From assembly GCA_019155205.2 (NCBI GenBank), contig JAHNZQ020003147.1:1021380-1085379 (forward strand): DNA of 64,000 nucleotides. The letters run 5' to 3'. The position numbers and the translations under genes are program-made. A model generated the notes under the pieces. That model was not told the DNA's origin. It ran no database searches and saw only the letters and a program-made list of their open reading frames with translations. Source of the stretch: Gracilaria vermiculophylla (taxonomy: Eukaryota > Rhodophyta > Florideophyceae > Gracilariales > Gracilariaceae). Each line of letters begins with the position of its first letter. The stretch's first letter is position 1. This document shows, one piece after another, positions 6,092 to 41,873 of this stretch.

Positions 6092-6672
6092 ATTGTAATG
6101 CATTTCGATCTCCTTTCGAGATGCTGGCGCATAACGTCCTTGCAGAGTTTTTGCGGACTCCAAGGGTGCGAGTTCTTAAACGTGGTCTGCGGTAATCACG
6201 GTCAAAAGTCGGGGTGATACTCATAGAGGGTCCACTAGCAGCAAGCGGGGAAGGATTTCACTGAGCGGGCAATGCTTCAACAGGTGCTGCTATGAGGCAA
6301 CCTGGAGATTGGCGGCTTAGAAACCTGAAAGCATTCGACACGACTCTCCAAACGAAAGTAGTAGAGGAAGACTCAAGAGTGCTTGGTTTACTTCCCTCAG
6401 AGATTAAACTCGACCGTCAGTGTACGTACCGTGCCGGGAGCCCGCGTGGAGAGCTACCAGGACTATAATAAATTCCTGCACCTGTAAACGAAAACAAATG
6501 TAAATTCAAGAAATCCTCAGGGCTACTGTAGCACAAGTGGGCCACGTAATGCACCACGCAAGTGGGCCATGTAATGCACCACGCAGGTCAGTTAATAAAA
6601 TAAGAACCCTCCTTAGGAATATCCCGTCTTAAAGTGACACGACAATATCCCCCTAGGATCCACTGTAACTTA
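6092..6672 (-). repeat. R2 3' LTR
   Basis: Aligns with all other family A LTRs in minus orientation. The right end CACTGTAACTTA corresponds to the terminal CACTGTACTACA. The left end is degenerate, so 6092 is approximate. It contains a private tandem duplication of a 25-bp unit (6534-6558 and 6559-6583, starting CAAGTGGGCCACG), absent from the other LTRs. The region just inside (TTCCTTTCCTAAATTG) is the complement of the family purine tract. Confidence 0.75.
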
Positions 6673-7087
6673 TACTTCCTTTCCTAAATTGCACCACGTC
6701 CCCAATGTGCATCTTTTCATAGCTCGCGCCTTAAACGGCTGCTAACGGTGTTGAGGTCAGAGTGGTCACCGGCGACGTGAAAAAAACTCTTTTCTGGAAA
6801 TGCTTCCGTACTTCCCGGTTCCTGCGCAGCGTACCAACGGCGGGCTCGTGTTTTTTCTGTGAGGGGGTTCTGGGCCCCTAGCTCTTTTTGAGTTGACCTT
6901 GTCTACCCGTTCTTGGTTTACCCTGCTGGTGCTAGAGCGCCCGGCCTACCATTTTTCGTGAGGATCCCTTCGGAAAACCTCCTCAGCCCTCGCGTCCGCT
7001 CGTCTATCCACTTTGGAGATAACGCACCCATATTTTTCCCTTCTGCCCTGTCGTCGTCCTCCGTCCACCATAAACCCACTTCCCACT

Positions 7088-7414
7088 AAGGTTCTCGTCT
7101 CCTCGCCTGCATCCCTTCTTCCGTCCTCTCCGCACATTCCTCGCCGGCGTCGTGACATGAATCCTCCCTCCGAGGGGTATATAACGACAGGCCTCTCCCC
7201 TGATGGTATTCTCTCCAGCTTCCCTGGTGCTCTTACGCCTTCGGTCTCCTTCATGCCGCCTACATGCATCTTCGGGATGACTTCTCCGGCTCAGGCTTCT
7301 GCTTCTCCGTCCAATCTTGAGGTGTATTACACCTTCACTATTACGCCATTTCGCCCAATAAAAAACCTCGACCACCGTACTACGCTGGTCTTCATGTCCT
7401 TCCATGAAAGGGGT
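7088..7414 (+). pseudogene. R2 antisense ORF, N-terminal piece
   Basis: Opposite strand to R2 gag-pol. The reading frame resembles the N-terminus of the R4 antisense ORF (32379 to about 32060): PHIPRRRRD against SPRIPRWRLD, then NLEVYYTFTITPFRP against NPEVYHTSTGAPFRP, ending FMSFHERG against FVPFHDKR. At the position of the R4 start ATG this copy has AAG (7088-7090), so its start codon is lost. R3 interrupts it at 7414/7415 and it resumes at 16195. Function unknown; see the R4 entry at 30306. Confidence 0.65.
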
Positions 7415-8277: not shown

Positions 8278-8805
8278 GTGCAGGCGTTCGAGCTCTGCGG
8301 CCGGAGCAGAAGTAAGTCTGGACTGTTTGCTGACTCCCTTAAGGCACCCAACGCTCACATTAATTCGAGGATTCCCCTTTCGACGATGTCACCGACTCCG
8401 TTCTTGGCTTTGCCGACCTCCACGGTGGAGCCAACGTTGTCCCGTCGGGAAACCGCTGTCCCAGCTGGTCCGCCGTCCGCGTCTCCTTCCGTGGCGGTTG
8501 TTGCTCCGTCAACGGAGGTGGTCGCTTCGGGTGCACTATCGAACGGAGTATCCTCTGGGGCTCTGGGGGCTGCCTTTCAGGAGTTGGGGCAGGCGTGCTT
8601 GGCGACGGGCCATCTTGCTGCGGTTTCTCCTGTAGCGATTCTGCTCGAGGCGCGTGCCTGGGTCTTAGAACTCCACAAAGCGCGGGCGGACGAAGCCTTT
8701 ATGATGGCCATCGACGAAAGCATGTTGGAGTTCTTCGAGGGACAAGCGCTCACGGCAGAAGATCGCCTCAAAGCGGAGTATACGACAAGATTTGGGGACC
8801 TCTAG
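8278..8805 (+). pseudogene. R3 antisense ORF, C-terminal remnant
   Basis: Open to the natural stop TAG (8803-8805), the same terminus as in R4 (30306), R2 (17947) and R5 (35089). Residues resemble R4: a proline/serine/alanine-rich linker with FLALPTSTVEP, then GAAFQELGQA, LELHKARAD and a C-terminal F-G-D-L. The SET-like middle and the N-terminus are missing; the ~300 bp between the purine tract and this piece does not match R4. No credible own start, so it is treated as a decayed 3' piece. The stop lies about 270 bp from the convergent pol terminus. Confidence 0.65.
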
Positions 8806-16194: not shown

Positions 16195-17947
16195 ACAGGC
16201 ACGTCATTCTCCCGTGACCCGTTGAAGACTGCATTTATCATTTTGGACCGCATTCTCACGCGATGGGGCTCCGCGCCGTACTGGAGGTCGCGTAGAACAA
16301 CAATAAGCGAAACAGGATGGAACATGGTTGCGCTCACTGGCTCCAAACTCCTGGGCACGGTGACAATGCTCCGATCATGGAGGAGCACTGCAACATTCTT
16401 TACCTCAGGTGCACTGCGATGCGCGACATTCAGACTCGACTCCAACTACTACTGCACCAAAAAAACTCACATCAGCCAGTGGGAAAGCCCGGAATCAATG
16501 CAGATGGACGCTCCGCACTTGCGGCGCTGCCCTTCGATCCCCCTTACGATCACCTCTACTGGCTCGATCGTAATCGATGCGGGACGCACCATGCGAATGA
16601 GATCCGAAGGCGCAACGCCTTCAGATACTTCTACGGGTGGCACAATACGGAATTAAATTATATGCCTTCCGGGCACCGTCCAAAGTGCTACCTCAAGTTG
16701 AATGACTTCTGAAGGGACCATTGGGTCTTCCCGCACCTCTTCGTGGCGACGGCCATCAGGTTCGCGTATCATACCTCAGGAATTCTGGATCCATATGACT
16801 CCTTAACACGTTTCACCATGTTGATCCCTTTGACGAAATTCGCAGTCGGTACCCTCGCGACTTATCTCCAGGCCATAAACGAGGGCGTCACTTCCAATTC
16901 CAGGTACCACGTTGGTCGCCTCAAATGTGATTCTTCGTATCACCCAACCGCCGGACATTTGCTTACCTTATCAGTGCTAATTATCCGGATTCTTTGCTTC
17001 TCGTGAATTCAAATTCTTGTCAAGGGCACCGCGTGGAGCAAATTAGAGGCCAATGTGGTGTCAGATTTTAACCTACAGCTGGCGTGAAACGATACGCCAG
17101 GTTTTCTGTAGTACGACTATGGCGAAGATAAGGTCCATCTCATTGTGACGAGCTCTAAAGCAGAAGATGACAGGCGAACCTACCCTGATTTTCTCCACAA
17201 TGCCATTTCTAGGGTCCCACAGGTGGCACGGGTCCGTGTCCCCAATTATTATCTCATGGTGGAGAGTCCAAGATCCGCACATCTCTTCCGTTACCAGCTC
17301 CGTCGCTGGACGTGGCTCCGCCCCCAGAGGTCGTGACGCAGCCTCCAGCATCGATGCCGGATCCTTTCGCAGTGGTGGCTGATGTGACTCCTATGGAAGA
17401 GGACGAGATTACGCCCGTCCCGGCTGCTTCGGCCCTACTGGTGCGACTGCCACTGCAGAACATCTCGGTTCCAGTTTTTCAGCCTCGCCTGAGAAGCCTC
17501 CCGGTTCTTATGACGCCGGCACCTCCGGATTCGACTGCTCCATACTTGGCCCCGCTGATCTCTGTGGCTGTGCCTACAGAATCCACTCGGGAGCCCACTG
17601 TCCCAGCTATCCCGCCGTATCCGATTCGTTCTGTGGGGGTTTTTGTTGCGTCGACTGAGAATGCCACTTCTGGCGTACCGTCGGGTGGGTTATCCTCTGT
17701 GGCTCTTGGTATTGCCTTCCAGGAGTTGGTGCCGTCTTGTCTGTTAACGGAACGTACTGCTTCTACTTCTCGTGTAAAGGGTCTGCGCGAGGCTCATAAC
17801 TGGATCCCAGAGCTTCATTACGCCCGGGCGGACCGAGATTCGATGGCTGCCATCAAGGAGAGCCTGACGGAGTTCCTTGATAGCCATTCACAAACAGCGA
17901 AGGCTCGCCATGAAGCCGAGTAGATGACACGGTTTGGTGACCTGTAG
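16195..17947 (+). pseudogene. R2 antisense ORF, C-terminal piece
   Basis: Continues the ORF broken at 7414. Blocks shared with R4: ADGRSALAALPFDPPYD, FAYHTSGILDPYDSL, KFAVGTLATY, CDSSYHPTAGHLL, ILVKGTAWS, YDYGEDKVH, ARVRVPNY, then the proline-rich linker, AFQELVPSC, LREAHNW, LHYARADRDSMAA and the final G-D-L stop at 17947. Internal stops include one before DHWV, one after the first TPTAG block, TGA at A-stop-NDTPGF (also TGA in R4), TAG before YDYG (TGA in R4; TGG is the simplest ancestor) and TAG at 17921-17923. The long shared frame against R4 is strong evidence that this was a real gene. Confidence 0.7.
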
Positions 17948-21882: not shown

Positions 21883-21982
21883 NNNNNNNNNNNNNNNNNN
21901 NNNNNNNNNNNNNNNNNNNNNNNNNNNNNNNNNNNNNNNNNNNNNNNNNNNNNNNNNNNNNNNNNNNNNNNNNNNNNNNNNN
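21883..21982. other. Assembly gap, 100 N
   Basis: Exactly 100 undetermined bases, a usual placeholder length. The true missing length is unknown. It lies inside Harbinger copy H1, preceded by a TAGAA-rich stretch (21770-21880). Confidence 0.95.
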
Positions 21983-22941: not shown

Positions 22942-23496
22942 TGTAGTACAGTGGCTCCTACGGCAATAGGGTGGTTTGGCCTTAAGGTATAATATTCCTA
23001 AGGAGGGTTCGTATTTTACTAGCTGGGCCACGTGGTGCATAATCTCGCCCGCGTGCGCTACAGTATTCTTGAGGTACGGTATAATTTATTATTTATTTTA
23101 GATATTTTATGCAGGTAATTCGCACAGTAGTGAGACCTGCTGAGGTGGGCTCCCGGCTTGATATTTAAGCTGCCGGTTGAGCTCCACCTCTGGGGGAGTA
23201 AAGAAAAGCACCCTTGAGTCTTCTTCTACATTTTCCAGTTGGGGTCTCTTGTCCATCAACTCATATTTCTAAGCCGCCGATCCCCAGGTCGCATCATAGC
23301 TGCGCCTTCAGAAGCATGGTCCGCCCAGTGAACCTCCCCCTTCGCTTGGTGTTTGCAGATCCCCTTTAAGAATTCCCGCGGCTCGCGATAGAGGATACCG
23401 GAGATCACCTTTAGGAACACGTGCCTTTGAAGTCAACGAAACCTCCTAACGGACGTTGTGCTTTACTACCTCGGGAGGAGCCCTGACAGTACCACA
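22942..23496 (+). repeat. R4 5' LTR
   Basis: Starts TGTAGTACAG and ends CTGACAGTACCACA, an imperfect 8-bp inverted terminus. Contains an AT-rich TATTTATTTTA stretch at about 23090, followed by a conserved hairpin (23111-23140). The LTR should carry the promoter and polyadenylation signals. Confidence 0.9.
23111..23140 (+). promoter_or_regulatory. Conserved LTR hairpin
   Basis: GCAGGT at one side pairs with ACCTGC 30 bp on; in most copies an inner ACTAC/GTAGT stem is added. Counterparts lie at 33080-33109 (3' LTR), 7768-7797, near 15990-16020, near 33880-33912 and near 62577-62606. The outer stem is kept while neighbouring bases drift. Possible roles are transcription start, RNA packaging or 3'-end processing; none can be shown here. 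Confidence 0.5.
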
Positions 23497-23652: not shown

Positions 23653-25930
23653 ATGGACCCCTCAAAACATCTAATGGAAACCACCCTACAGGATCCTCAA
23701 ACAACCGACACTGTCGGGGGAAGCAGATCGCACAGCGCTTCCCAGGAGATGACCGCCACACTGGAGGACCCTGAAAGTCTCCTTCGGAATCCTGGCTCCT
23801 CTGTGCAGCGTTTCAGGAATCAGCTTAGGAGACTGTATGATCGGAGACAAGCGGAAACCCCCGCGACACCTCTGGAGAACGCCAATGTGGAGGTTGAAGA
23901 ACCGCACACGGCATCGCAGCCGCCATCCCAGGTGCTGCAGGGACGAAAACACCCAAAGGCTAACTCCCTCCTGGAGTCGCTGCCCCCGCGCCTTACGGAT
24001 TGACTCTCACGAGAGCTGGTCGAACGAATACCTGCAGGTGTTGAAGCCCACTTTGAAGCCCGCCGCCACGCCTTTGTGGAGGACATTGCAACGGAGAGCG
24101 ATCACCGTGCTGTGGATGCTTTGCTGGATTCTGACCCCTTCCTTGAGGTGATCTCAGATGTTATCCGTGCGGAGGCTCGCTCACAATCCGCACAGCTGCT
24201 CCCCGCAGCGGCGTTTCAAAGTTATTCTTCCGTACAGGAGAGGTTCCCTCTATCAACACCTAAGGTGACCCCGGGCAGAGAAGGACATGATACTGCCATC
24301 CCTCACGCCAGAGGAGAAGAGGATACTGCGGAAGGGAAACGGGACCACCTCAGGAATCTTGCTATGCACCGTCTGGTTCTCACGCCCGGCGAAGGAGGAC
24401 AGAGTACCGGTCGCGAAGCAATTCACCTAAGAAGGGAAGAACAGGATACTCCTCGGGTGGATCGTGATAACGGGGATATTGTCAGGTACCCAGGCCACCT
24501 CAAGAAAAGATGCCGAAAGAAACGGAGGGAGGAAAGAAGAAAGCGAGAAACCGTTTCGGAGAGAAGCGCAGACTCCGAATCCGTGAACAGCTCCAGTTTG
24601 GAGGACAGTACGCTTCCCAAAGAGAAGAGCAGAAGGGTCAGGAATGTCGTCCCGCTTAACGACTTCTTCGCCAAAGTGGTGGATTATGACACCTACAGGT
24701 TGAATAATCGCTCCACTCTTTACAACGCATCGGTCGCTAAACGACTCACGAAGATCCAGCGCCGCATGGATATTCAAATTGAGAAGCACTACTTCTCAGG
24801 CGAAGACCCCATCTCGGTGTTGAATGTTCTCACGCGCTTCCGTTCAGCGTGTAACACCAATGGTGTCCATGCAGGTGCCGCCGTATGATGCTGTCAGTTC
24901 TACCTCACAGGCCAAACCCACTCGCTGGTACAGCCGCGCGTCAGGGGGAAGAGCACCATTTTGGACGATCCTGGAACGGAGATCTTGACGACGTACCCGG
25001 AGGTAGTCAACTTCCTCCTTAAAAGGTATGCCACGGACGAGGTGATAGCCGATTCTGATGCTGAAGTCACCTCCAATAGGCTGAACACAGGAATGATGGA
25101 GACAAAGCTCTCATAGAAGCTGTGGACGAAGGCCCTACGGTGTGGGAACGTGTACTCCGAAAGGCGGTTGAAGTCGTTCTTTGTCGAGGGCCTCCTTCCC
25201 TCGATATGCGCGAGGGTGTGTTATCACCTTACAACGCACCCAAAGACCACCTATACGGAGCCAGCACGTTTCGCGGAGTCCTATGGAGATACCTGCTGCG
25301 CCACTTGCCGCAGCCATACTCCACTTTCGGACAAAGCGGCGGCCTCAAGGACCCGTCGCGCATCTGCCATGATATTGGGCTCCAGCACCTCGGAGGAGGT
25401 CGACGAGCTCACGCTCATAGGAGAGCAAGAGGCCCTTGCCCTCACATACGCCTCATCTCAGGGAGCACCATCCAGGACGAGGACATCCTCGTCTTCCACC
25501 TCGTACGCTTCGACGGGATCCTACAGGACCGTCCGGTTTGCGAACCCTCGAGGCAACCCATCGCCTTGTAGTATTTGCTTGTCTCGAGAGCCCGTACATT
25601 GTACGACTCTCACCTTGGCAATGAGGGCCGCCATCCTGTAGGAAAGAGAGAAAAACTTCCAGGACCTGAAGGACACACCATCGGAGAGCGAAAGTTATCG
25701 AACCGCTTATCGCGACATCCGCTCCCCTCAAGGAAACTACGGTTACCGTGCTTCTCTGGGAGTGCAGCCTTTCCCACTGTCTTTTGCACCCGCAACGAAG
25801 GTGCCCGTATGTAAACCGGTTGCACCTCAAGGGAACACGTCGCATTTTAATGCACAACCGCAGAAGCCGTCCCCGACTGGAACTCAGCCCCTCTCCAACC
25901 AGGAAAACCCTCAGAGCTACCCGTAGAAGC
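23653..25930 (+). pseudogene. R4 gag
   Basis: One frame runs from ATG 23653 (MDPSKHLMETTLQ) past 25641, broken only by TGA 24001, TGA 24886, TAG 25114 and TAG 25639. The last two replace Gln (CAG) of sister copies. Order: N-terminal region with LEDPESLLRN and RFRNQLRR; IATESDHRAVDALLDSD; charged region (KKRCRKKRREERRKRE); AKVVDYDTYRLNNR; FYLTGQTHSLVQP; a zinc-knuckle-like PCSICLSREPVHC; and a Q/P-rich tail. Gag forms the particle and binds RNA. A frameshift separates it from protease. Confidence 0.75.
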
Positions 25931-26039
25931 TCCGCGTGGCTCTTTACCATCGAGCCTCAACTCTGCGGAGGTCGCCTTTAGGAAACGGGGAGAGGCCGTC
26001 TGCTCCGTCGATGCAGAATCGGCGTGCCCCCCAATCCCC

Positions 26040-26969
26040 TTGGACCCATTCGACACCTTTGAGGATTCTGTTTGCACGCTCCGCCGTGGGAATTACAAGG
26101 TATTCGCCTCTATAGGATGTTCCCCGCTCACCTCCACTACGGTGGGCGCTATCCTCGATACCGGAGCCGGCCCCAATCTGGTGATTGCCGACGTGCTCCA
26201 GCGGTTTGCTCTTGGCTCCTTGAGGACTGGCAAGCTCCCTACGGTGCGCGATGCGTCGCGTCGAGCCTTGAACATCCTCGGCACAATCCCCTTGTACCTC
26301 CGGTTGGGCTCCTTACATGTGAAAGTGTGGTTCCTCGTGGCGACCAATTTGGCCGCACAATGCATATTGGGCACTTTCTTTGTGGATCGGTATGTACGTC
26401 CAATCTACCTACGCCTGCGGAAGGTGACGTTTCACGACGCCGCCCCTGTCGGTATCGTGTACGCATCTCCAAGACCGGACGCCAACGCGCATCACGTGGG
26501 TAACCTTCCAAAGGAGACGCAGTCGAATAAGCTCCGAGTGGTGAAGAGCATCGAAATACCCGCGAGGAGTCAGGCCTAAGTCTGGGTGCAGACCTCTGCA
26601 TATGGCCTATCATTTCTAGAATGGATTCCACACCTGACGACGAAGCAGCACTCCATGATGGCGAGCGGTGTTATGGAGATAATACCGAACATTCCCTTCA
26701 GGGTCGTGGTCGCTAACCTCAAGGAGTCGCCGTTACTGCTCCAGAAAGGAATTGTCGTCGGACTGGCACTACCCTCCCCTGCAAAACTGACTCATCTTCC
26801 TCGTGCGGAAGATTTTGCGCACTGCGATACAATCGTCACCATGGAGGGTGAAGCGACTTCACCGGCTCCAGAGGAAGAGAATCCTGCACTGTGGCAGGAG
26901 AAGCTCCAAATTGGCGAGGATTTTGAAGGGTATTGCCATAGGATAGTGGAGATGCTATCCGTCTCTTAG
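26040..26969 (+). pseudogene. R4 retropepsin and spacer to RT
   Basis: Starts MDPFDTFEDSVC. Residues 37-47 read GAILDTGAGPN, with the catalytic Asp at residue 40 (26157-26159). The flap/tail region is VKVWFLVATNLAAQC. TAA at 26577 replaces a sense codon of sister copies (Glu in R1 and R3). The second half carries QTSAYGLSF, LTTKQHSMMAS and PIPFRVVVANLKESPLL and leads to RT. It ends with TAG 26967, after which the frame shifts by one. Confidence 0.75.
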
Positions 26970-26974
26970 CACAT

Positions 26975-28216
26975 GTGGTCTGGTGGCCTGATCATGTCAG
27001 CCTGGCCAAGCACAAAATCCAACTCACACCGGATGCAAAACCGGTACATCAACTCCCGAGGACGACCGGACCCAATGCGCGCGATTTCGAAGGCGATGAG
27101 GTCCACTGGATGCTGAGGAAGGGGGTTATCGAGCCTTCCAATTTCGAATGGGCCTCTTCGGTGGTGTTTGTCAAGAAGAAAGATGGCTCCTTAAGGTTCT
27201 ATGTTGACTACACACGCCTCAACGAGGTGTCGGTACGCGATTCGTACCCGATACCCCTTATGGATGAATGTATCTACTCCTTAGGCGATGCGTCCGTTTT
27301 CTCCACGCTGGATGCCAACAGCAGCTACTGGCAGATCGAGATGGACGACTCCGATAAGGATAAGACAACGTTCAACTCGCACTGTGAGATCATCAGATTC
27401 CTAAGGATGCCATTTGGATTGAAGAATGCACCCGCTACGTTCCAACGAGCAGTGGACATAATCAATGCAAAGGTGAAGTATCAGTACGCCTTGGTGTATA
27501 TCGATGACGTCATCATATACTCCCGCAGCGTGGAGGAGTACTTTTTCCATGTGAAGCACGTGATCCAACTCCTAAAGGATTCTGGACTCACCTTGAAGCT
27601 GGAGAAATGTTTCTTTTTCAAGTCGTCGGTGAACTACCTGGGGCATGTTGTGCTTCCAAGCCGCCTACAGGCTTCTTGGAGAGATCCGGACGCCATCAAG
27701 GAGGCTCACCCTCCCACGAACCAGACAGAGCTCCGCTCCTTCCTAGGATTTTGTAACGTCTTTCGGAGGTTTGTACCGAATTTTTCCCGTATAGCGGTGC
27801 CATTGAATCGCCTCTTAAAGAAGGACAGGCCGACGCAATTGGGAATCTTTACCGGTGAAAATTTTGAAGCCTTTAACACCCTGAAGAGGAGACTAATAGA
27901 ACCACCGATCTTGGTACTCCCAAAGTGGCACGGCCGAACGGTGTTGGACGCTGACGCCTGTAAATACCAGGTCGGATGTGACCTCCTACAGGAAAAACCG
28001 CAAGGTGGACTTCAACCCATCGGATACTGGAGTCACAGCCTCAAACCTACTGAGCGGAACTACTCCACATCGGAGCGCGAATGTCTTGCCATCGTATGGA
28101 CGGTTCTGCTCTTACGCCCGTACTTCGAAGGCACGCGTTTCACCCTGAGGACAGACCATGCACCACTGAAGTGGATACTGTCCTTGACGGATGCTTCCGG
28201 TCCCCTGGAAAGGTGA
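26975..28216 (+). pseudogene. R4 reverse transcriptase and RNase H
   Basis: Long open frame of 413 codons. RT blocks in order: SSVVFVKKKDGSLRF, FSTLDANSSYWQIEMD, RMPFGLKNAPATFQ, YALVYIDDVIIYSRS (catalytic YIDD intact), LKLEKCFFF, YLGHVV. RNase H: VLDADACKYQVG, SERECLAIVW and RTDHAPLKW provide the acidic residues. It ends at TGA 28214, where R1 has Trp (TGG). Start codon and the fusion to protease are obscured by the upstream frameshift. Makes DNA from the element RNA. Confidence 0.85.
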
Positions 28217-28985
28217 AGGTTACCCCTCCAGGAGTTTGAGTTTGACATCCTCCACCGTCCTGGCATAAAACACCAGGCAGCGGATGCGCTCTCGAGCATC
28301 TCCACCGAGGGCAAAGATAAAACACCTTTGGAGGACAACATCCCGTGTCTGGTCATCCAAGACGCCGACGGAAAAGAAAGATCCAATGGAGAATGTTTGG
28401 AATGCTGTAAATCTGTAGGAAAGTCTAGTGGACTCCCTGAAGTGATGGCTCTTGTTGAGGAGGAGAAAGAAGTTCTCCCCATTACCGTAGTGTAGTTTCT
28501 GAAACAACGGAGTGCGTATGCGTACTGCAAGGAGTGTCTCGCCACTGTGGGGAGTTTGACATCTTCATTCGATGTTGTCGGAGGTGGCGTGCTCGTACGC
28601 CGCGCCTCTCTGGATGGAGCTCTTCAAAAGGTCGTCCCGACGAAGCTGCGGGTGAGATTGTTGTACATCTCGAACTATCCTCGCCCCGCCGGGCATCCCG
28701 GTGGATCCCGGATGTATTTTACCATGTGGAGGGAGTTCTAATGGCCAAAAATGGCTAATGACGCCTTCCAAACGGGGGCGGGTTGCTATTCTTGCGCCGC
28801 CACCAGGGGGAATATACGGAAACACCGGACGCCGCTCACGCTGTTCCCACCTTCAGGACCATTGGAGCTTGTGGCCATGAACATCTTGGGTCCTCTCCCC
28901 ATGACGAAGCGAGGGCACCGATTTATCTTCGTGATCACGGATCGTTTCTCCAATATCACGCGTGCCATACCCCTAGGAGCATCCC
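28217..28985 (+). pseudogene. R4 RNase H end, linker and integrase N-terminal half
   Basis: Continues the RT frame after TGA: HRPGIKHQAADALS, an acidic linker, TAG 28494, CKECLATVGSLTSSFD, then the integrase zinc region GHPGGSRMYF...CYSCAA after a TAA at 28739-28741. The core begins LELVAMNILGPL, with Asn where R3 keeps the first catalytic Asp, and VITDRFSNITRAIPL. A frameshift near 28980 moves the frame for the rest. Confidence 0.7.
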
Positions 28986-29997
28986 TGCACCAGTGATTCT
29001 CGACGCCTTTCTGGAGCATTGGGTTTACCCCTATGGGATACCGTTGTACCTTCTCACGGACCATGGCCCGCAGTTCGCAGCGAAGCTCTTCAGCGCCGTC
29101 TCTGGAATGCTGGGGATGAAACAGTTGTTTACAACTACGTATCACCCCCAGACCAACGAACAGTCAGAGAGGTTCAACAAGACCATCGCCTCGAGGCTGA
29201 AGCACTACGTCGCGGACCACCAAAAGGATTGGGACGAATATTTGGGTCCCCTCACGTATGCATACAACCTGCAGGTGTACCGCTCCACGGGTACCGCTAC
29301 TTTCAATCTGGTGCTCTCGCCCATCCCATCAATTGCCGTCATTGCGGCACGCGCTACGGCATACCCCGCGGATGGGCCACAGGCGCCAACAGCGGCGCAA
29401 GCCAAACGCTCCATCCTAAGGCGGTATGAGAACGCACTCTCCCTCGCAAAGGAGAGGCTCAACGCCTCGCAGTGGAGATATAAGCAGGACTTCGACCAGA
29501 ACGTGATGGAAGGCCCTCACCTAAAGGAAGGCGACGAGGTTTTTCTCGACAAACCCGGGGAAACATTCGACGAACCGCCGAACGTCACGCGCAAGTTAGC
29601 GCCGACCACCTCAGGGCCCTACAAAGTCCTGGCCACCTATGGGGATACTGTCGCCATTGAGGTAAACGGGCTCCGAGACGTCGTCTCCCATGATAGGGTA
29701 ACGAAAATCCTAACGCCCGGCCTCTCAGGAATTCCCGTTACCCCACCTCAGGGACAACGCGCGGAAAATCCTCATCCGACCACTTCAGGCGCGACGACAC
29801 CACGGGATACTGGGAACCTCATCACCGCTCTCGGTGACCCATCACCGGAGGCTGCCGATGGCATCCTGACCCCTGACGGTGACATCCTCTTCGCAGCGGA
29901 CCATATCTTCTCCCATCGACAAACCCCTGCGGTTATACTGTACCGCGTCCGCTGGCATGGGTACACCTCGAAGGACGACACGGAAGAACCTCCGTAA
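28983..29997 (+). pseudogene. R4 integrase core end, C-terminal domain and chromodomain
   Basis: An open frame formally starts at 28783, but its first ~65 codons are out of frame with integrase. From 28983 it reads YLLTDHGPQFAAKLF (second Asp), YHPQTNEQSERFN (Glu), YAYNLQVYRS, KEGDEVFLDKPGE, a GPY/F-like SGPYKVLA, a proline/threonine-rich spacer and the chromodomain ILYRVRWHGYTSKDDTEEPP with the Trp intact. TAA at 29995 falls where R3 has Glu. Inserts cDNA; the chromodomain is expected to guide it to chromatin marks. Confidence 0.8.
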
Positions 29998-30305
29998 CAT
30001 ATCTCGAAGAACGTCCTTAGGCGATAACACGCCAATCTGGTGCGGAAAAGCCTCTCCACATGGGCGCTTCCGTTTAGAAAAGGGGGAGGGGGTCCCCAAC
30101 CGGAGTTCTTTTTCGCCTCCGCAGTCTATCCCCTACCTGGAGTTATCTTTTTCGCCTCCAGGATGCCGTTGCTCGCTTTCCGCATGCTCCCACGGCGGCG
30201 CTTTGTGTCGTTGAGCACGCGGGCACGGCCTATTCATATTGGAATTACCGTTCATGGAGTTTCTGCTCTATCCTAAGGATTTTTTCTTTGCCCGGGCTCT
30301 ATCAC

Positions 30306-32379
30306 CTATAGGTCATCAAATTGCGTGGAGTGCTCTGCTTCGATGCGCGGTTTCGCTGTGAGGGCTTGGATATCGAAGAACTCCGACAGGGTTTTCTTAA
30401 GGACCGCCATCGAGGCTCGGTCTGCCCGGGCCTTGTGGAGCTCTACGGCCCAGGCATGCGCCTCGCGCAGAGCCTCCACAGGAGAAGCCGGAGCAGGACG
30501 GCCTGTCATCGGGCCCGCCTGCACCAAATCCTGGAAGGCAGCCTCCAGTGCCCTATAGGAGACTACTCCCGACGGTGCACCCGATGCGGCCACTTCCGTT
30601 GACGGCGAAACAACCGCCACGGAAGGAGCCGTTTACGGCGGACCAGCTGGGACAGGGGCTCCCCGACGGGATTCCACAGGCTCCGCAGTGGAGGTCGGCA
30701 AAGCCAAGGACGGAGTCGGTGACGCCGGAGGTGACGGCGGTGCGTGAACTGGAACGATTCGCAGGCGAGGCCGGGGAACAGGCGCAGGGACGCTCCGCCC
30801 TCGGAGTTGCACCACTGGAGCCAAAAGTACCGGGACGGGAGCAATCTCGTTCTCTTCCACAGCAGAAACGGCGGCTACCACTGCGGGAGAACTTGGCACT
30901 GCGGCGGGCCGCGGAGATATCACCTCAGGAGGTGCACTCATATCCTGGGACGGAGCCGGTAACCGATGGGACGTATCATACACCAGGCTTTCCATCAAGG
31001 GGTCGTACTCGGGTATTCTGAGCCGTGGCACCTGAGGAAACCGAGAAGGCGCCAGACGGGGAAAGGAAGGGTATGCTCGCCCGTCATCATCTCTATTCGG
31101 ACTCCTCACAATGGGGTGGAACTTGTCCTCGCCGTAGTCGTATCACTGGAAACCCGGCGTGTCATTTCACGCCACCTGGAGGTTGTAATCCAACATCATC
31201 TCCCCCTCGGACTCACTCCATGCGGTGCCCTTAACCAGGTTTTGGATGCCAGAGGAGCGCAACACCCGGATAATGAGCGCCCACAAGGGGAGCAAACGTC
31301 CGGCGGTCGGCTGATATGACGAGTCCCAGTAGAGGCGGCCGTCGCGGCATCGAGCATAAAAGGTTACTCCTTCGTCCTCTGCTTGGTGATACGCCATCAG
31401 GGTGCCGACCGCGAACTCCGTTGAGGCGACCAACATGACAAACCGCCCTAGGGAGTCATGCAGATCCAGGACCTCGGAGGTGTGATACGCGAAGGTCATG
31501 GGCATTGCCACGCAAAGGTGCAGAGATACCCAGTGGTCCCTCCAGGAGTCATTCACCTTGAGGTAGTACGTCTGACGCTGCCCGGAAGGCATTTCATGTA
31601 ATTACGAGTTATGCCAACCATAGAACTACCCGAAAGGGGTGCGTACTCGAGTCTCGTCCGCAAGGAGCGTCCCCCATCGATTCCGATTAAGCCAGTAGAG
31701 ACGATCGTATGGGGGATCGAAGGGCAACACCGCGAGGGCAGAGCGCCCGTCGGCAATGCTTCCGGGTCGCCCCGCTCTCTGGTGCACGCTCACCCTGTGG
31801 AGCAGTACCTTGAGTCGCGTCTGGATCTCGTGTTCCTCAGCGCACCTCAGATATGGACTGTCGCAGTGTCCCACCGTGGTTGGAGCGTTTTCATCGTGCA
31901 CCGGAGTGTGGAGCCAGTGAGAGCGATAGGCACCCACCCGCTTCCGCTTCTTGTCGTTTTATCGCAACCTCCGGTACGGCGCGGAATCGCATCGCCTGAC
32001 GGTATGGGCCGAAGTGGTGAATGTAATCCTCCACGTGGCACGGGAGGCTTACTCGCTTGTCGTGGAACGGAACGAAGACCTGCGTGGCGCTATGATCGAA
32101 ATACTCTCCTGGACGGAACGGGGCACCGGTCGAGGTGTGGTAAACCTCAGGATTCGAAGAAGACGTAGGCGCCGGAGTCGGAGAAGACATATAGAAGGTG
32201 TAGGAAGCTGGATGGATGGCGACGGAACGCGTGGTAGCACCTGAAGAGAGAGATTTGACACCACCCGGGGAACGATCCGCGGTTATATGCGCCACAAAGG
32301 AAGGAGCCGCGTCAAGCCGCCATCGTGGAATTCGAGGAGAAGCCGGGCGACAGGAATCAGGCGAGGTATGAGGCACCAT
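30306..32379 (-). pseudogene. R4 antisense ORF, near full length, possible SET-like protein
   Basis: Runs against gag-pol from ATG 32379 to TAG 30306, ~691 codons, between pol and the 3' LTR. One frameshift near 31930; the rest stays in one frame with a few stops. Layout: N-terminal region (PHTSPDS, APFRPGEYFD), LPFDPPYDRLYWLNRNRWG, FAYHTSEVLDLHDSL, EFAVGTLMAYHQAEDEG, WDSSYQPTAGRLLPL, NLVKGTAWSES, A-stop-NDTPGFQ-stop-YDYGEDKFH, PRLRIPEYDP, a long Pro/Ala/Ser-rich linker, then a probably helical C-terminus (LREAHAWAVELHKARADR). The order GTL..Y..AE, D..., GRL, N-L-V, DTPG, YDYGE resembles a SET methyltransferase, but the NH motif is not visible. The same ORF is kept in R2. Alternatives: an element-specific protein of unknown fold. 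Confidence 0.6.
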
Positions 32380-32896
32380 AACGAGGCGCGCATTTATATC
32401 CAGTGAAGGACGACGGGGACGCAGACGAGGGGATTATGAGACTTGCATCTTCAAGGAGAAGGGATGAACGGACGCGGTGATGTGGGTGTTTCCTGAAGGA
32501 GAATCCTCGATGGAATCGGAACGGTAAGCGCCTCAAGGGAGTCAGTGTCTACTCTGGGCTGACCAACGCTCTGGCCGCGGAGTTTGCGCGACTACACCGC
32601 GGACGACGAACTTGAATGCATGGGAGCTCACGCCGCCAACTGGAGCGGTTTCACAGAAAGGATACGCCGATAAGGAGGAGATGCAGCCCAGTCAAGGAGG
32701 AGCGAGGCCCGCAAACACCACAGGGGATGAAACTCAAGCTCGCGGCAATGCGCCGCGCAGGAATATGAAGAAATGGAGGAACGCGCGAAGGAGAGCATGT
32801 GTCAATCGCAAGAAGCTGCGCTTGCAGCAACACCCATAGGAGCCACCTCGCGGATCAAGGAATCGGAAGATGCACCTCGAAGACGTGGTCCAATTT
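32380..32896. other. R4 region between antisense ORF start and 3' LTR
   Basis: Should hold the promoter of the antisense ORF. It contains CATGGGAGCTC and charged open frames (32612-32839) that I do not recognise. It shares little with the R3 and R5 regions at the same place. Confidence 0.4.
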
Positions 32897-32909
32897 AGGA
32901 AAAAGGGTA
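32897..32909 (+). other. R4 polypurine tract
   Basis: Purine-rich AGGAAAAAGGGTA directly before the 3' LTR. R5 (GAAAGAGGGGTA) and R3 (GGGGAAGGGGATT) have equivalents as complements. It primes plus-strand DNA synthesis. Confidence 0.65.
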
Positions 32910-33464
32910 TGTAGTACAGTGGCTTCTAAGGGAAAAAACGGTGGTGTGGCCTTATGGCATAATATTCCTAAGGAGGGCTCGTATTTTACTAGCTGGGCCA
33001 CGTGGTGCATAATCCTGCCCGCGTGCGCTACTGTATCCTTGAGGAACAGTAGAGTTATTATTTATTTTAGTTCATTTATGCAGGTAATTACTACAGTAGT
33101 GAGACCTGCCGAGGCGGGCTCCCGCCTAGATCCTTAATCTGCCGGTTGAGCTCCACCTCTGGGGAGGTAAAGACAAGCATCCTTGAGTCTTCATCTACTT
33201 TTTCGCTTGGAGACTCTCGTCGATCAACTCAGGTCTCTAAGCCGCCAATCCCCAGGTCTCATCATAGCAGCGCCTGTAAAAGCATGGTCCGCCCAGTGAA
33301 CCTCCCCCTTCGCTTGGTGTTTGCGGATCCCCTTTAAGAATTCCACCGGCTCGCGACAGCGGATACCAGTGACCAACTTTAGGAACACGCACCTTTAGAG
33401 TCAACAAAAACTTCTAACGGACGTTGTGCTTTACTACCCCAAGAGGAGAGCTGACAGTATCTCA
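32910..33464 (+). repeat. R4 3' LTR
   Basis: TGTAGTACAGTGGC to CTGACAGTATCTCA, 555 bp, collinear with the 5' LTR throughout. The final bases are changed. It lies 68 bp from the oppositely oriented R5 LTR, so two LTRs face each other. Confidence 0.85.
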
Positions 33465-33532: not shown

Positions 33533-34084
33533 CGTGGTACCGTCAGTTTTCTTTTTCAGGTGGTAGTGCATAACGTCCGTTAGACGTTTTTGCTGACTCC
33601 AAAGGCGCAAGTTTCTAAATTTGGTTCCCGGCAATTGCTGTCATTAGACGGGTGATTTTTGAATGGGGATCCGCATAGACGAAACGGAGGAGGAGGCTCA
33701 CCGGGCGGACAATGCTCCTACAGGGGCTGCTACTGGGCGACTTGGGGATCAGTGGCATAGAAACCTAAGGATGTGCGACGAGAGTCTTCAACCCAAGAAT
33801 AGACGTAAACGCAAGTGTGCTCGGTTTACTTCCCCAGAGGTTAAGCTCGACCGGCAGGGTAAGTACCACACCGGGGGCCTGCCTCTGCAGGTCTTACTAC
33901 TGTAGTAATAACCTGTACCAGCTAAATAAAACAAATCCAAATTCTACCTTCCCTCAAGGGTACTGTAGCGCATGTAGGCCGAACTACACATCGCGTGGCT
34001 CAGTTGATAAAATACGAGCCCTTCTTAGGAATATCCAGTCGTTCATCCACATGACAATATAACCTTAGGATCCATTTTACTACG
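33533..34084 (-). repeat. R5 3' LTR
   Basis: Left end CGTGGTACCGTCAG, right end CCATTTTACTACG. 552 bp. The conserved hairpin is at about 33880-33912 with both stems. Followed by TACCCCTCTTTC, complement of a purine tract. Confidence 0.85.
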
Positions 34085-34640
34085 TACCCCTCTTTCTGAA
34101 CTGCTCCACGTGCCCAAGGTGCGTTGTTTCACATATGAATCCAGAAGTGGCTCTTAATGGTGTGGACGCCATAACGGTCTCCCCAATATGAGACAAACCC
34201 CGCCTTCTGTGAAGCTTTGCTGAACTCTCTAGCCTTGGTGCAGCGGACCGGCCGCCGGTTCGCGTATCTCATTCGAGGCAATTTTGGGTTACTGACGCCC
34301 CTGGCCCAAACACACTTTCTCCTTTTCGGTGCCCACCCACTGGTGCTACAGCTCCAGTTGGTGCTTATCTCTTCCGCGCCCCCGAGTGTCGTCCGTACGG
34401 CGTCGGCGTTTTGCGTTCGCGGTTGGGGCGCGGGCCGGTTCGGTTTGTTCGCCGGTTTCTTCCCGTGGTACGGTGTAGCCGTCCCTCACAGCGCCAGACG
34501 CTCCAACTCCCTCTAAGATCCCATTCGGGAAGCAATCGATCCGTCGTGTCCGTTCGTGCATCCCCATGGGAGGTGTCCCAACTCATAATCCTCTCTCCTG
34601 CGCAACCCTCGGTTTCCCCTGGATACGAACTCGATTCTTA
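34085..34640. other. R5 region between LTR and antisense remnant
   Basis: The first ~120 bp match the same place in R2 and R3. The rest has open frames on both strands that I do not recognise. The N-terminal and SET-like parts of the antisense ORF are missing. Confidence 0.4.
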
Positions 34641-35089
34641 CCACGGTTCTCATTTCTTGAGTGTCTCTTATTCATCAAATGCCACGGCTGCGTGTCCCTG
34701 ATTATGACCCGATGGTGGGATGCCTGGCGATCCATACACGACATCCGTGACCGGCTCCGTTCCAGGACGTGGCTGCGCTCTTCGAGGTGGTGCAATTGTC
34801 ACTTTGTGCGAACGCCCGGGCGGGTCGTCCTCTGTGACTCTTGATACCTCCTTTCAGGAGTTCTTGCACGCGTGTCTGGTGACGGGTCGCTCTGTGCCTG
34901 CCTCTCCTGTAAAGACCCTGTGCGAGGCTCTTAACGGGGTTCTTGGACTGCACAGGGCACGGACAGCGGACAGACCGAGCCTCGATGGCTGCCATCACGG
35001 AGAGCCTGAAGGAATTCATTGAGAGCCAAGTTCTCACAGCAAGTGCTCGCCTGGATGCGGAGTATGAAATGCAGTTGAGTGACCTGTAG
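34641..35089 (+). pseudogene. R5 antisense ORF, C-terminal remnant
   Basis: Begins with PRLRVPDYDPMV, as in R4 (PRLRIPEYDPLM), loses most of the proline-rich linker, then shows DTSFQEFLHAC, SPVKTLCEALNG and a final block ending at TAG 35087-35089 with the conserved D-L terminus. A frameshift near 35000 separates the last part. Supports the view that the C-terminal domain persists when the middle is deleted. Confidence 0.6.
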
Positions 35090-35122
35090 GCGTGAGGAGA
35101 TACTCCGGCTGTGGTCGCTGGT

Positions 35123-36717
35123 CTACGGTAGCGTCGGAGTAAAATATCCTTGAATTGGAGCAGAACCTCCCTGGACGGTAATTGTAATACGAATGGGGCG
35201 TGCCCGAACTCCTAATGGCACAAAGTGCCGACGCGGAAGCGTCCGACAAACGAGAAACGGCGGCTTAGGGGCCAAAATGAGAACTCCTGGTGAGAAAGAG
35301 ATAGCGGAAAACGAAAAACAACTTCGGTGTGGGGCCCCTTTCCCCTTTCCTAAACGGAAGCGCCTATGTGGAGATGCGTTTCCGCTCCAGTATGGCGTGA
35401 TACCCCTTGATGAAATTCTCCGGGATGTGTCCCAGAGGGTCTTCTGTGTCAGTCTTTGAGGTGGATTCGTATCAGTGGACGCGGTGCAGTATTCCTGCAG
35501 GGGTTTGTCGGTGAGAGGCGATATGGTCCACCACATACAGGATATCACCTTGAGGGATCATGACGGCGTCTTAAGCTTCCATCAATTGTTTTCCGAAACG
35601 TGTAATGGGATTTTCGAGTATTCATCGGTGTCATCGCTTCTGAGGTTGTCGGAGTAAAACGTTCCGTGCGTGGCTCCTGAGGTGGGTTGCGGGGCGTACC
35701 TGAAGTGTTGGGCGTCGGGACTGTTGTCAACCTATCCCGGGGGAAGACGTCTCGAAGCCCGTTCACTGCAGGGGCAACAGTTTGTTTCCAGTAGTCCAGG
35801 ACTTTTTAAGGCACTGGGGTGTACGGCGCTAACTTGCCCGTGACTTACAGTCGTTTGTCGGACATCTCCACAGGTTTGTCGAGGAATACCTCGTCGCCTT
35901 TCTTCATGTGATGGCCTTCTTTCACCTTCCAGTCAAAATCCCGTTTTTATTTCCTCCGCGAGGCGCTGAATCTCTCCTTTGCGAGAGACAGTGCATCCTC
36001 ATAGTGCCTTAGAATGGAGCACTTTCATTTATCCGCTGTTGGTGCCTGTGGCCCATCCGCCGGATGTGCCGTGGCGCATGCCACAATGACGGCACTAGGT
36101 GGGATGCACGATAGCACTATCTTGAAAGGAGCGGTCCCCGTGGAGCAGTGCATCTATAGGGAAAATGCATATGTGAGCGGGCCCAGGTATGCGTCCCAAT
36201 CCTTCTGGTGATCCGCGACGTGGTGTTTCTACCTTGAGGTGATGGTTTCGTTAGACCTCTCCGCCTGTCCGTTGGTCTGGGGGTGACATGCAACGGAAAA
36301 CAACTGTTTCACCTACAACATTCCGGAGATGGTGCTCAATAGCTTCGCCGCGAGCTAGGGTCGGTCGTTCGTAAGGAGACACAACGGAATCCCATAATAT
36401 TAAACCCAATTCTCTAGAACGTTGTCAGCAATTTCTGCTGCAGTGGTGCTCTAGAGGTAAATGGCGTGCATGATCTTCGAGAACCGATTGTTCATCACGA
36501 AGGTAAATTGGTATCCTCTCTCCGACTTGGGGAGAAGGACCAAAATTGTAATGGTCATGAACGGCAATGATCCTAAAGGCAGGAATAGGGTCAGCGGCGT
36601 CCGATGTATGCGGGTGAATACCCTAGCGGCCGCGCACGAGTGGCAATTTGCCACCGTTTGGAAGGCGTAATTAGCCATGTTCGACCAATAGAGCTCTCTC
36701 CTCATGGTGAAATACAT
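35123..36717 (-). pseudogene. R5 integrase and chromodomain
   Basis: Zinc region and core start at 36717-36451 (MYFTMRRELYWSNM, CHSCAAAR, YQFTFVMNNRFSK). Core end near 36300 and the C-terminal domain near 35900 are in shifting frames; 35766-35545 is the spacer. In the chromodomain the frame reads HRVH, TGA (complement of 35472-35474), YESTSKTDTEDP; R4 has HW in RVRWHGYTSKDDTEEP, so the conserved Trp codon TGG is now TGA. Confidence 0.65.
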
Positions 36718-38790
36718 GCGCGACCCACCGGGGTGCCCGGCAAGCCAAGGGTAGCGCTAGAGGTACTGCATTCACCCTCTTAAACTCTTCCGGGATCACG
36801 TTTTGGAGAGCACCGTCCAAAGGAGCGCTTCGTAGAAGAACGCCGTCTCGGTCGCCATCGAATGACGATGTAAGACCCCCCACGGCGGCGAGGCATTCCT
36901 TGCAGTATACATCCATACTCTGCTCCTTCAGGATCTCCGCTATTGTGATTGAGAGAACTTCGTTCTCCTCTTTGACAAGGGCCATCATCTCAGAGAGCCA
37001 ACTAAATTTGCCTCCAGGTTCACAGTATTCCAAAACGTTTCCTTCGGTTCCTTCTTTCTTATCGGCATCCTCGATGACTAGAAAAGGAATTGTGTCTTCC
37101 AAAGGTGTTTTGTGTTCTTCTTCTGTACAGATTCGAGACAGTGCATCCGCTACCTGGCGATTTAGACCATAACGGTGGATGATGGCAAATTCGAACTCCA
37201 GAAAGCGTAGTCTCCAGCTCTTCAGGCAACCGAAAGCATTCGTCAAGGACAGTATCTGCTTCAATGCTGCGTGATCCGTCCTTAAGGTGAAACGCTTGCC
37301 TTACAAGGACAGGCATGAATGCAACACCGCCCATACGATGGCAAGACATTCGCGCTCCGGGGTGGATTCCATCTTCAGGTTGTTCCAGTAGGAGGGCACA
37401 TCCGATCTGATATTTATAGGCGTCTGTGTCCAGCACTATCCACCCGTTCCGCTTTATGAGAACCAAGGTAGATGGCTCTTCTTGTGTCCTCTTCAAGGTG
37501 TTGAACGCTTAGAACTCCTTGTCCGTCAGAATATCCGATTGTGTCGGCATGTCGCTCTCCAAGAGGGGATTTAACGGCGCCGCTAATCGGGAGAAATTCG
37601 GAACATACTTGCGAAAGACATCGCATAGCCCAAGGATGAAGCGGAGCTCCGTTTAATTTGTGGAAGGGTGAGCTTTCTTGATGGCGATGTAAGTATTTGT
37701 GGAAACCTGGAGGTGGCCCGGGAGCATAACATGCATCAGATAATCTACGAAGAACTTGAAAACGAAACACTTCTACAGCTTCAGGATGAGTTTTGCATCC
37801 TTCGGAAGTTGGAGAACGTGCTTTACCTACATAAAGTGCACCTCCACGCCGCGAAAGTATATAATGACATCACCAATATTCATCAGAGCGTTCTTCTACT
37901 TCATTTTCGACTGAATTATGTCCATCGCTCGTTGAAGGGTAGCGGGTGCATTCTTCAATCCCAATGGCATCCTTACGATTCTGAAAATTCTACAGTGGGA
38001 GGTGAACTATGTCGTATCCTTTTCAGATACATCTATTTCAATTTTCCGGTAAATAGGATTTGTATTTAGTGTGGAGAAAAGGGACGCATCACTCAAGGAG
38101 TGGGTACATATATATATAAGAGGTATCGTGTACAATTCGCATACATTCACCTCGTTAAGGCGTCTATAGTCAATGCAGAACCTCAACGGGCCGTCTTTCT
38201 TCTTCACCAACAGCACTGAGGAGGCCTATTCGGAAGTAGAGGGCTAGATGAAGCCCTTGTACAGCATCCAATGGACCTCATCGCTTTGAAAATAACGCGC
38301 ATGAGGTCCGGCCTTCCTCGTAAGCTGGGGTACCGGTTTTGCATCAGGCGTGAGCTAGATCCGGGGCTTGGCCAGACTGACCTGACCCAGGCTACCAGAC
38401 CATATCCTCAAAGTCGGATAGCATCTCCACTATCTTATGGCAATACTCTTCGAAACAATCGCCAATTCGGAGCTTCTCCTGCCAAGTGGCAGGTTTCGCT
38501 TCCTCTGGAGTCACCGATACCGCTTTGGGTTCTATGGTAGTGATAGAATCGTGAGTATCCAATCCATTCTTCTGCAGAATGTGAGCCAGTCCTGCAGGAG
38601 CTAGTAATGCCAATCTGAAGACAGACCTTTTCTGGAGCCGTAACGGCGCCTCCTGCAGGTTGGCAAGCACGACCCTGAAGGGAATGTTCAGCACTATCTC
38701 CCTATCGTTGCTCTCCCTCATGGAGTGCTGCTTCGTCGTCAGATGTGGACTCCCTTGTGGGAATGAAAGGCCAGGTGCTGAGGTCTGCAC
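36671..38790 (-). pseudogene. R5 reverse transcriptase and RNase H
   Basis: 38790-38392 holds the RT lead-in (QTSAPGLSF, LTTKQHSMRES); 38216-38007 has LLVKKKDGPLRFCIDYRRLNE and FSTLNTN. Downstream pieces are heavily shifted, and no YIDD is readable. RNase H at 37496-37059 keeps IVLDTDAYKYQIG; 37264-36671 has the RNase H end and linker (IHRYGLNRQVADALSRI, CKECLAAVGGLTSSFD). Confidence 0.7.
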
Positions 38791-38849
38791 CCAAACGTCG
38801 GCCTCACTCCTCGCTGGTATTTAGATACTCTTCACCATCGGGAACTTAT

Positions 38850-39337: not shown

Positions 39338-39394
39338 ATGGATTCAGGGGCCGGCCGATTCTGCGTCGACAGTGCAGACGGCTTCTCCCGCTTT

Positions 39395-41719: not shown

Positions 41720-41873
41720 ATAGGAGTAGGTCGAGGGTGAATCCCTTCCACTACCGATTTCTCGTAAAAAAGAAATCCACTGTCGGGCTCCGATTGTTGA
41801 AAACTAAGAACGCTGTTCTGTCATAACTATTGCGACTTCTACAGGAACTGATTTTCTACGTCGGGAGACCAGT

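What the first reader, a model, noticed from the sequence alone, without database searches (positions are those of the whole stretch)
30306..32379. Retrotransposon family with a conserved ~690-codon gene on the antisense strand
R4 has an ORF opposite to gag-pol, from 32379 to 30306, between the chromodomain end and the 3' LTR. R2 has the same ORF, split by R3, with the same start area, block order, terminus and length (2080 against 2074 bp). Most differences I can compare are substitutions that keep one frame, so the ORF was under protein-level selection while the family was active. Antisense ORFs are known in a few plant gypsy elements, but I do not recognise this protein.
Basis: partly seen in the sequence, partly recalled or inferred. 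Interest (0 to 1): 0.9.

Follow-up and report, generated by a model that had tools for sequence, protein, structure and literature searches.

The report
Antisense accessory gene in algal retrotransposons
A large, now decaying family of jumping genes in what is probably a red alga carries an extra protein gene written backwards behind its normal genes, and the pattern of older mutations shows that natural selection kept that backward protein intact while the family was active.

Summary
The antisense frame is real and was a protein-coding gene. In the window copy (R4) it is decayed (one frameshift, at least five stops), but two of 54 aligned family members are open over the whole 698-codon frame. 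Single-copy variants hit the three codon positions about equally (500/498/477, codons 61-698), as expected of decaying copies. Variants shared by six or more copies, which mostly arose while the family multiplied, sit at third positions (49/32/209), with N/S 0.37 against 3.34 and no stop. The ratio of the two implies an omega near 0.11 overall and 0.04 in the N-terminal domain. The signal starts near codon 61-72 and ends at the stop codon. Against the more distant R2 family the frame keeps its length almost without gaps, while LTR, leader and pol-aORF gap do not. The protein (conserved ~385-aa N-terminal domain, proline-rich linker, probably helical C-terminus) matched nothing in Pfam and nothing credible in PDB; profile searches found two fragments in unnamed public assemblies. 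Host gene content points to a red alga. [quoted passage not shown] Function unknown; a trans-acting accessory protein is most likely.

The parts
22942..23491 (+). 5' LTR of element R4
   Evidence: 86.2% identical to 32910-33459 over 552 columns
25851..30055 (+). pol region of R4 (decayed): protease-like, RT, RNase H, integrase, chromodomain-like end; start approximate
   Evidence: RVT_1, RT_RNaseH and RT_RNaseH_2; weak gag-asp_proteas, rve, SH3_Tf2-1 and Chromo at E 0.0028-0.023, all below their cut-offs; in R3 Chromo E 0.0012 and rve E 1.3e-7, also below cut-off, and Integrase_H2C2 above it
30306..32403 (-). antisense accessory gene (aORF) of R4, decayed; 698-codon frame as aligned to L027, with ATG in R4 at 32379 (codon 9) and 32190 (codon 72)
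31038..32190 (-). aORF N-terminal domain (frame codons 72-455), strongly constrained
   Evidence: 54 copies, codons 73-455: N/S 4.16 among singletons, 0.18 among shared variants, shared positions 21/8/152
30618..31037 (-). aORF proline-rich linker (codons 456-595), weakly constrained
   Evidence: N/S 2.22 singletons, 1.30 shared; composition
30309..30617 (-). aORF C-terminal part (codons 596-698); helical in a low-confidence model of the R2 version; low shared synonymous variation in codons 596-665
30061..30305 (.). gap between the end of pol and the aORF stop (tail-to-tail genes)
   Evidence: 77.9% identical in R3, 73.7% in R5; about 59% with 29 gap columns in R2
32404..32909 (.). leader between aORF and 3' LTR; inferred place of an antisense promoter
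   Evidence: shared variants flat over the three positions in the 420 nt upstream; promoter not tested
32910..33459 (+). 3' LTR of R4
7070..7412 (+). R2 aORF, N-terminal piece (before the R3 insertion)
16195..17947 (+). R2 aORF, remaining piece (after the R3 insertion)
6129..6671 (-). 3' LTR of R2 (boundaries approximate)
   Evidence: 70.0% identical to the R4 3' LTR over 516 aligned columns, 61 gap columns
8374..8805 (+). R3 remnant of the aORF: C-terminal ~143 codons only
34708..35089 (+). R5 remnant of the aORF: C-terminal piece only
   Evidence: profile match E 6e-16 at 34708-35019

Best explanation
R4 and R2 belong to a large group of Ty3/gypsy elements with a chromodomain-like pol end, in a genome that is probably a red alga's. 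Besides gag-pol they carried an accessory gene on the opposite strand between pol and the 3' LTR, tail to tail with pol. SHOWN: the frame was under purifying selection at the protein level while the family multiplied; it was present before the R4 and R2 lineages split; it has a conserved ~385-aa N-terminal domain, a poorly conserved proline-rich linker and a conserved C-terminal part; relative R3, and probably R5, lost the N-terminal domain secondarily. Pooled single-copy changes look neutral, so the copies as a set are now decaying; no per-copy test was made. INFERRED: the gene was transcribed as its own mRNA from a promoter in the ~500-nt leader or the 3' LTR. INFERRED: the protein worked in trans as an accessory factor of transposition, such as a nucleic-acid-binding or nuclear regulator or a counter to host silencing, because internally deleted relatives without its N-terminal domain could still spread.
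For: Shared variants against singletons: all six frames; by domain, by threshold, without CpG transitions, copies from the DNA search only. Onset near codon 61-72 and end at the stop. Fixed differences between subfamily A and R2-type in codons 73-455 by position: 9/285, 5/301, 55/188. R4 against R2: aORF N-domain 71.8% with 1 gap column in 978, linker plus C-terminal part 66.9% with 1 in 731, codons 1-71 58.7% with 0 in 213, pol end 72.3% with 3 in 984; LTR 70.0% with 61 gap columns, leader 58.0% with 122, gap 59.1% with 29. R3 (80.2% in pol) and, by a small margin, R5 (74.0%) are nearer to R4 than R2 (72.2%) yet lack the N-domain. Three copies share one deletion breakpoint, so a deleted form multiplied. 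Element context: the pol-side flank is present in 51-52 and the leader side in 45-52 of 54 aligned copies. Open copies. Relatives elsewhere: P0001, E 6e-28, and P0002, E 3.7e-21.
Against: No transcript was available, so promoter and mRNA are not shown. Function rests on no homology: no Pfam or PHROGs match and no credible PDB match. Structure models are poor (mean pLDDT 41.7 and 54.8). In the small sets the picture is mixed: subfamily B has two shared nonsense variants and no constraint in the C-terminal part (N/S 2.25 shared, 2.4 single, 13 shared variants); R2-type shows little in codons 1-72 and the linker (1.9 and 1.43 shared). Variants in 2-5 copies hold 55 stops and N/S 2.11. The LTR is as similar between R4 and R2 as the aORF is (70.0% against 71.8%), so identity alone does not single out the gene; gap freedom and codon positions do. 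Deleted relatives spread without the N-domain, so the protein may not have been essential.
Confidence: 0.85

Rival explanations
1. The frame is the shadow of a sense-strand gene, for example an env-like gene in intact copies.
For: The sense frame that shares third positions with the antisense frame also has a lowered N/S among shared variants, 0.61.
Against: That sense frame has 14 nonsense variants among the shared ones, the antisense frame 0. The three sense frames hold at least 8 stops in each of the 54 copies and 13-24 in the two open copies.
Confidence: 0.02
2. It is a host gene or another mobile element's gene caught in one family, and the selection reflects a host copy.
For: The protein has no relative in any named family searched.
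Against: The pol-side flank is present in 51-52 of 54 aligned copies, so these are element-borne. The gene is shared by families about as far apart as their pol. The two open copies have private N/S of 2.71 and 3.43, near the pooled 3.34.
Confidence: 0.06
3. The antisense RNA, not the protein, was the product (dsRNA or antisense control of gag-pol RNA).
For: Any antisense mRNA would be complementary to the 3' part of the genomic RNA. Shared synonymous variation is low in codons 596-665 (0.10 per four-fold site against 0.61 in codons 61-150) with normal singletons, so a nucleic-acid element may overlap the C-terminal part.
Against: An RNA function alone does not give N/S 0.18 with four-fold sites free to vary in the N-domain. 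No shared RNA fold in the C-terminal stretch: -4.91 kcal/mol, covariation term -0.39, 54 sequences.
Confidence: 0.05
4. Env-like or particle protein: the product is a structural, membrane or entry protein rather than a regulator.
For: It sits where env genes sit, though reversed. One stretch of L027 reaches a mean hydropathy of 1.92 over 19 residues (residues 321-339), above the commonly used cut-off of 1.6 (recalled), so a membrane segment is not excluded.
Against: That stretch lies inside the conserved domain and contains a glutamate; no second such stretch above 1.6 outside residues 318-339 is among the five best windows. Env-like genes at this place in plants are sense-oriented (PMC7264820, parts 1 and 2 of 3 read).
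Confidence: 0.08

Closest known systems
Antisense aORF-3R genes of plant LTR retrotransposons (Grande gene23, RIRE2, Retand ORF4, PvRetro13)
   Same: Antisense gene between pol and 3' LTR, present in most copies, protein of unknown function (PMC7264820).
   Different: Retand is a non-chromovirus lineage and 97% of its clusters carry antisense ORFs with the Transposase_28 domain (PMC11963269, passages). Here no Transposase_28 match in three open or nearly open copies' proteins or in the genome (which rang in no control genome either); pol ends in a chromodomain-like stretch; the host is probably a red alga.
Boty antisense gene brtn (Botrytis cinerea)
   Same: Additional antisense gene in a fungal retrotransposon (named in PMC7264820, and PMC8365987, passages; the 2011 original was seen only as a reference entry).
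   Different: The brtn sequence was not at hand; whether the proteins are related is untested.
HTLV-1 HBZ and other retroviral antisense genes
   Same: Protein read from the minus strand of a retroelement (HBZ mentioned in PMC11963269, passages).
   Different: No sequence comparison was made. The present gene lies outside gag-pol coding sequence; details of HBZ's overlap are recalled, not looked up.

Membership tests
Antisense accessory ORF between pol and 3' LTR (aORF-3R) | Lies between pol and the 3' LTR, opposite to gag-pol | tested here: met
   R4 and R2; pol-side flank present in 51-52 of 54 aligned copies
Antisense accessory ORF between pol and 3' LTR (aORF-3R) | Present in most copies of the family | tested here: inconclusive
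   40 of 40 scored DNA candidates and 64 of 64 scored protein candidates match, but they were sought with the ORF itself; R3, R5 and L084-L088 lack most of it; elements were not counted independently
Antisense accessory ORF between pol and 3' LTR (aORF-3R) | Sequence kept by selection on the protein | tested here: met
Antisense accessory ORF between pol and 3' LTR (aORF-3R) | Transcribed antisense from its own promoter (reported for Grande) | not testable with these tools
   no RNA data
Retand / Transposase_28 antisense proteins | Transposase_28 domain (PF04195) | tested here: not met
   no Pfam match at E <= 1 in three near-full-length proteins; genome search empty, with no positive control
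Ty3/gypsy chromodomain elements (chromoviruses) | Retroviral-type RT and RNase H, and integrase | tested here: met
   RVT_1 and RNase H domains; Integrase_H2C2 above and rve just below cut-off in R3
Ty3/gypsy chromodomain elements (chromoviruses) | Chromodomain at the integrase C-terminus | tested here: inconclusive
   Chromo E 0.0012 (R3) and 0.023 (R4), both below the curated cut-off
Ty3/gypsy chromodomain elements (chromoviruses) | RT phylogeny inside the chromovirus clade | not tested
   no tree was built

The most novel reading that the evidence does not exclude
An old, so far undescribed protein family carried on the antisense strand of gypsy elements of red algae and spread over several species (P0001 and P0002 being two of them), acting in trans as a dedicated accessory factor; its C-terminal coding stretch overlaps a second, nucleic-acid-level element that deleted relatives retain.
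Probability: 0.3. Interest if true: 0.65.

Novelty: new member of a known kind. Interest (0 to 1): 0.52.

Why it matters
Whether antisense ORFs of LTR retrotransposons make working proteins is still open; a broad survey of plant elements raised the question whether such extra ORFs have any function (PMC6317226, passages). This family gives a direct population-genetic answer for one case: strong protein-level selection on an antisense frame, in a lineage far from plants and fungi if the host is a red alga. It also offers a large natural set of copies, with losses of the gene in related elements, in which the role of such a gene could be tested.

Tried and rejected
Protein homology: whole protein, no hit at E <= 0.01 among the 7,995 candidates scored; profile A1, one hit; N-domain profile A4, two hits, of which P0001 was itself a row of A4, so its E-value there (1.9e-44) is circular and is not used. 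No Pfam or PHROGs relative; no PDB relative by sequence and two PDB chains at E about 0.3 by profile, taken as noise. Viral contigs: nothing. Structure prediction from window pieces alone: mean pLDDT 41.7 and 54.8, too poor for a fold search, which was not run. Domestication of the two open copies: not supported, private N/S 2.71 and 3.43 (26 and 31 classified changes); other copies range from 1.29 to 17 on small counts and were not tested singly. Conserved RNA fold over the C-terminal stretch: R4 alone folds with z -4.06, but 150-nt windows of four copies vary and 54 sequences share no stable fold. Relation to gag or another window ORF: among 515 window frames of 60 or more residues the A1 profile hit 12, all in aORF regions of R2-R5. 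Host by 18S RNA: not completed. Fungal Zn_clus family: no match, but no control rang. That I saw no paper on such a gene in red algae rests on the listings only.

My odds did not rest on that point and stay as they were, except that the env-like rival went from 0.07 to 0.08 after I weighed the hydropathy value again.

Rows dropped before counts: of 60 subfamily-A loci held, 54 were used (L031, L036, L040, L039, L061, L063 left out for splits or N); of 12 R2-type loci, 11 (L079 left out); all 8 of subfamily B were used; 54 of 84 available stretches were given. Copies were fetched as best matches to the ORF, so frame intactness and indel rates are biased; the shared-against-singleton contrast is not explained by that and holds in the 36 copies from the DNA search. 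The deleted forms L084-L088 were found with an R3 query that contains the C-terminal stretch, so their keeping it is partly by choice of query.

Full report
WHAT IS THERE. The window holds several nested Ty3/gypsy elements. R4 (LTRs 22942-23491 and 32910-33459, 86.2% identical) carries RT and RNase H and weak integrase and chromodomain matches. Behind pol, on the opposite strand, lies the frame of the finding. In R4 it is broken: five open pieces, one frameshift, at least five stops. The same genome (G000, 44.8 Mb, 27 contigs) holds many relatives: 40 of 40 scored DNA candidates and 64 of 64 scored protein candidates match, out of 558 and 1,111 first-look candidates. Two copies, L027 and L034, are open over all 698 codons of the frame (no other of the 54 aligned copies is).

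IS IT A GENE? Copies of a decaying family carry two kinds of variants. Those seen in one copy arose mostly after insertion; those shared by many copies arose mostly while the family multiplied. Among 54 aligned subfamily-A copies (60 held, 6 left out), singletons in codons 61-698 are nearly flat over codon positions (500/498/477) and give 1,099 N, 329 S and 47 stops. Variants shared by six or more copies fall at third positions (49/32/209) and give 78 N, 212 S and no stop: odds ratio 9.1, p = 1.3e-58. Dividing the two N/S values gives an omega of about 0.11; this is a ratio of ratios, not a fitted codon model. The result holds with a threshold of ten copies (OR 14.3), without CpG transitions (OR 10.8) and with only the 36 copies from the DNA search (OR 10.6). 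Over the whole frame, variants in 2-5 copies are intermediate (N/S 2.11, with 55 stops).

WHICH FRAME AND WHICH LIMITS? Of six frames only the antisense one has low N/S and no shared stop; the sense frame with the same third positions has N/S 0.61 but 14 shared nonsense variants, and the five other frames hold 13.6-20.9 stops per copy on average against 5.5. The three-base signal begins at about codons 61-72 and ends at the stop; about 420 nt upstream and 200 nt downstream show none. Codons 1-60 show a weaker effect (OR 3.0, p = 0.0055); 4 of 4 deletions relative to L027 in codons 1-72 are three bases long, and R4 and R2 align there without a gap over 213 columns at 58.7%. The start is therefore open between codons 3, 9 and 72.

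DOMAINS. Singleton and shared N/S are 4.16 and 0.18 for codons 73-455, 2.22 and 1.30 for codons 456-595 (proline-rich), 2.93 and 0.52 for codons 596-698. In the smaller sets the N-domain contrast has the same direction: subfamily B, 8 copies, 2.3 and 0.31; R2-type, 11 of 12 copies, 3.01 and 0.96. Other regions in these sets are mixed: the C-terminal part of subfamily B shows no constraint (2.4 and 2.25; 13 shared variants), and subfamily B has two shared nonsense variants.

DEPTH. Fixed differences between subfamily A and R2-type in codons 73-455 are 9 of 285, 5 of 301 and 55 of 188 at positions 1, 2 and 3. Between R4 and R2 the aORF N-domain aligns at 71.8% with one gap column in 978, linker plus C-terminal part at 66.9% with one in 731, and the pol end at 72.3% with three in 984; the LTR aligns at 70.0% but with 61 gap columns, the leader at 58.0% with 122 and the pol-aORF gap at 59.1% with 29. 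So the gene is older than that split, and like pol it kept its length while the non-coding parts did not. R3 (80.2% in pol) and by a small margin R5 (74.0%) are nearer to R4 than R2 is (72.2%), but keep only C-terminal remnants, so the N-domain was lost in R3 and probably in R5. Three further copies, L084-L086, share the same deletion breakpoints, so a deleted form multiplied. They were found with a query that contains the C-terminal stretch; R5 was seen without it.

WHAT IS THE PROTEIN? No Pfam or PHROGs match and no credible PDB relative. Two fragments in unnamed public assemblies are relatives: P0001, 52% over 102 residues, and P0002, 47% over 154 residues with the same step from conserved domain to proline-rich stretch. 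Which organisms they come from is not known. Structure models from the window alone are poor; in the R2 version the last ~75 residues are modelled as helices with block-mean pLDDT 60-79.

HOST. Ten light-harvesting (PF00504) and seventeen phycobilisome (PF00502) matches, twelve of the latter nearly full length, together point to a red alga (that this combination marks red algae is general knowledge, not a call). The 18S request did not complete.

HOW IT PROBABLY WORKED. Shown: coding, selection, age relative to the R4-R2 split, domain pattern, loss in relatives, present decay of the copies as a set. Inferred: separate antisense mRNA; action in trans. For Grande an own promoter and a nuclear protein are reported (PMC7264820, parts 1 and 2 of 3 read). 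By analogy the best guess is an accessory regulator, at perhaps 0.35; the confidence of 0.85 given above refers to the gene and its selection.

COMPARISON AND NOVELTY. [quoted passage not shown] PMC8365987, passages; PMC11963269, passages). A survey of plant elements found extra ORFs highly heterogeneous and raised the question whether they have a function (PMC6317226, passages). This family meets the position and selection criteria, with a protein that matched none of the families searched and a probably new host group. The listings of eight paper searches showed no such gene in red algae. Hence: new member of a known kind, with unusually direct evidence of selection.

LEFT UNEXPLAINED. Four-fold sites of codons 596-665 carry 0.10 shared variants per site against 0.61 in codons 61-150, with normal singletons (0.80 and 0.71). 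The decline along the gene is gradual (0.61, 0.44, 0.56, 0.30, 0.29, 0.23, 0.10, then 0.54 over 13 sites at the end). No shared RNA fold explains it.

Noticed in passing
window 30408-30617 (aORF codons 596-665): Shared synonymous variation is about six times lower than near the N-terminal end while singletons are normal, hinting at an overlapping nucleic-acid element; no shared RNA fold was found.
   Followed up: partly
L084, L085, L086, L087, L088; window 7413-16194 (R3) and 33538-41946 (R5): Several internally deleted relatives lack all or most of the aORF N-domain; L084-L086 share one deletion breakpoint and so multiplied as a deleted form.
   Followed up: partly
G000 contigs C20 and C17:3006506-3176520: Phycobilisome genes occur on C20 and again within a ~170-kb stretch of the 5-Mb contig C17: plastid DNA in the nuclear genome or an assembly join.
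   Followed up: no
window 22504-22941 and 49833-50271: Directly before R4's 5' LTR lies a stretch 92% identical to part of the region of the DDE_Tnp_4 transposase frame at 49806-50840; R4 seems to have inserted into such an element.
   Followed up: no
window 21883-21982 and 48311-48410: Two runs of exactly 100 N, presumably scaffold gaps.
   Followed up: no
window 54674-57862: A further set of long frames with retroelement-like looks (first-glance impression only; no Pfam match for the one frame tested, 55130-55825).
   Followed up: no
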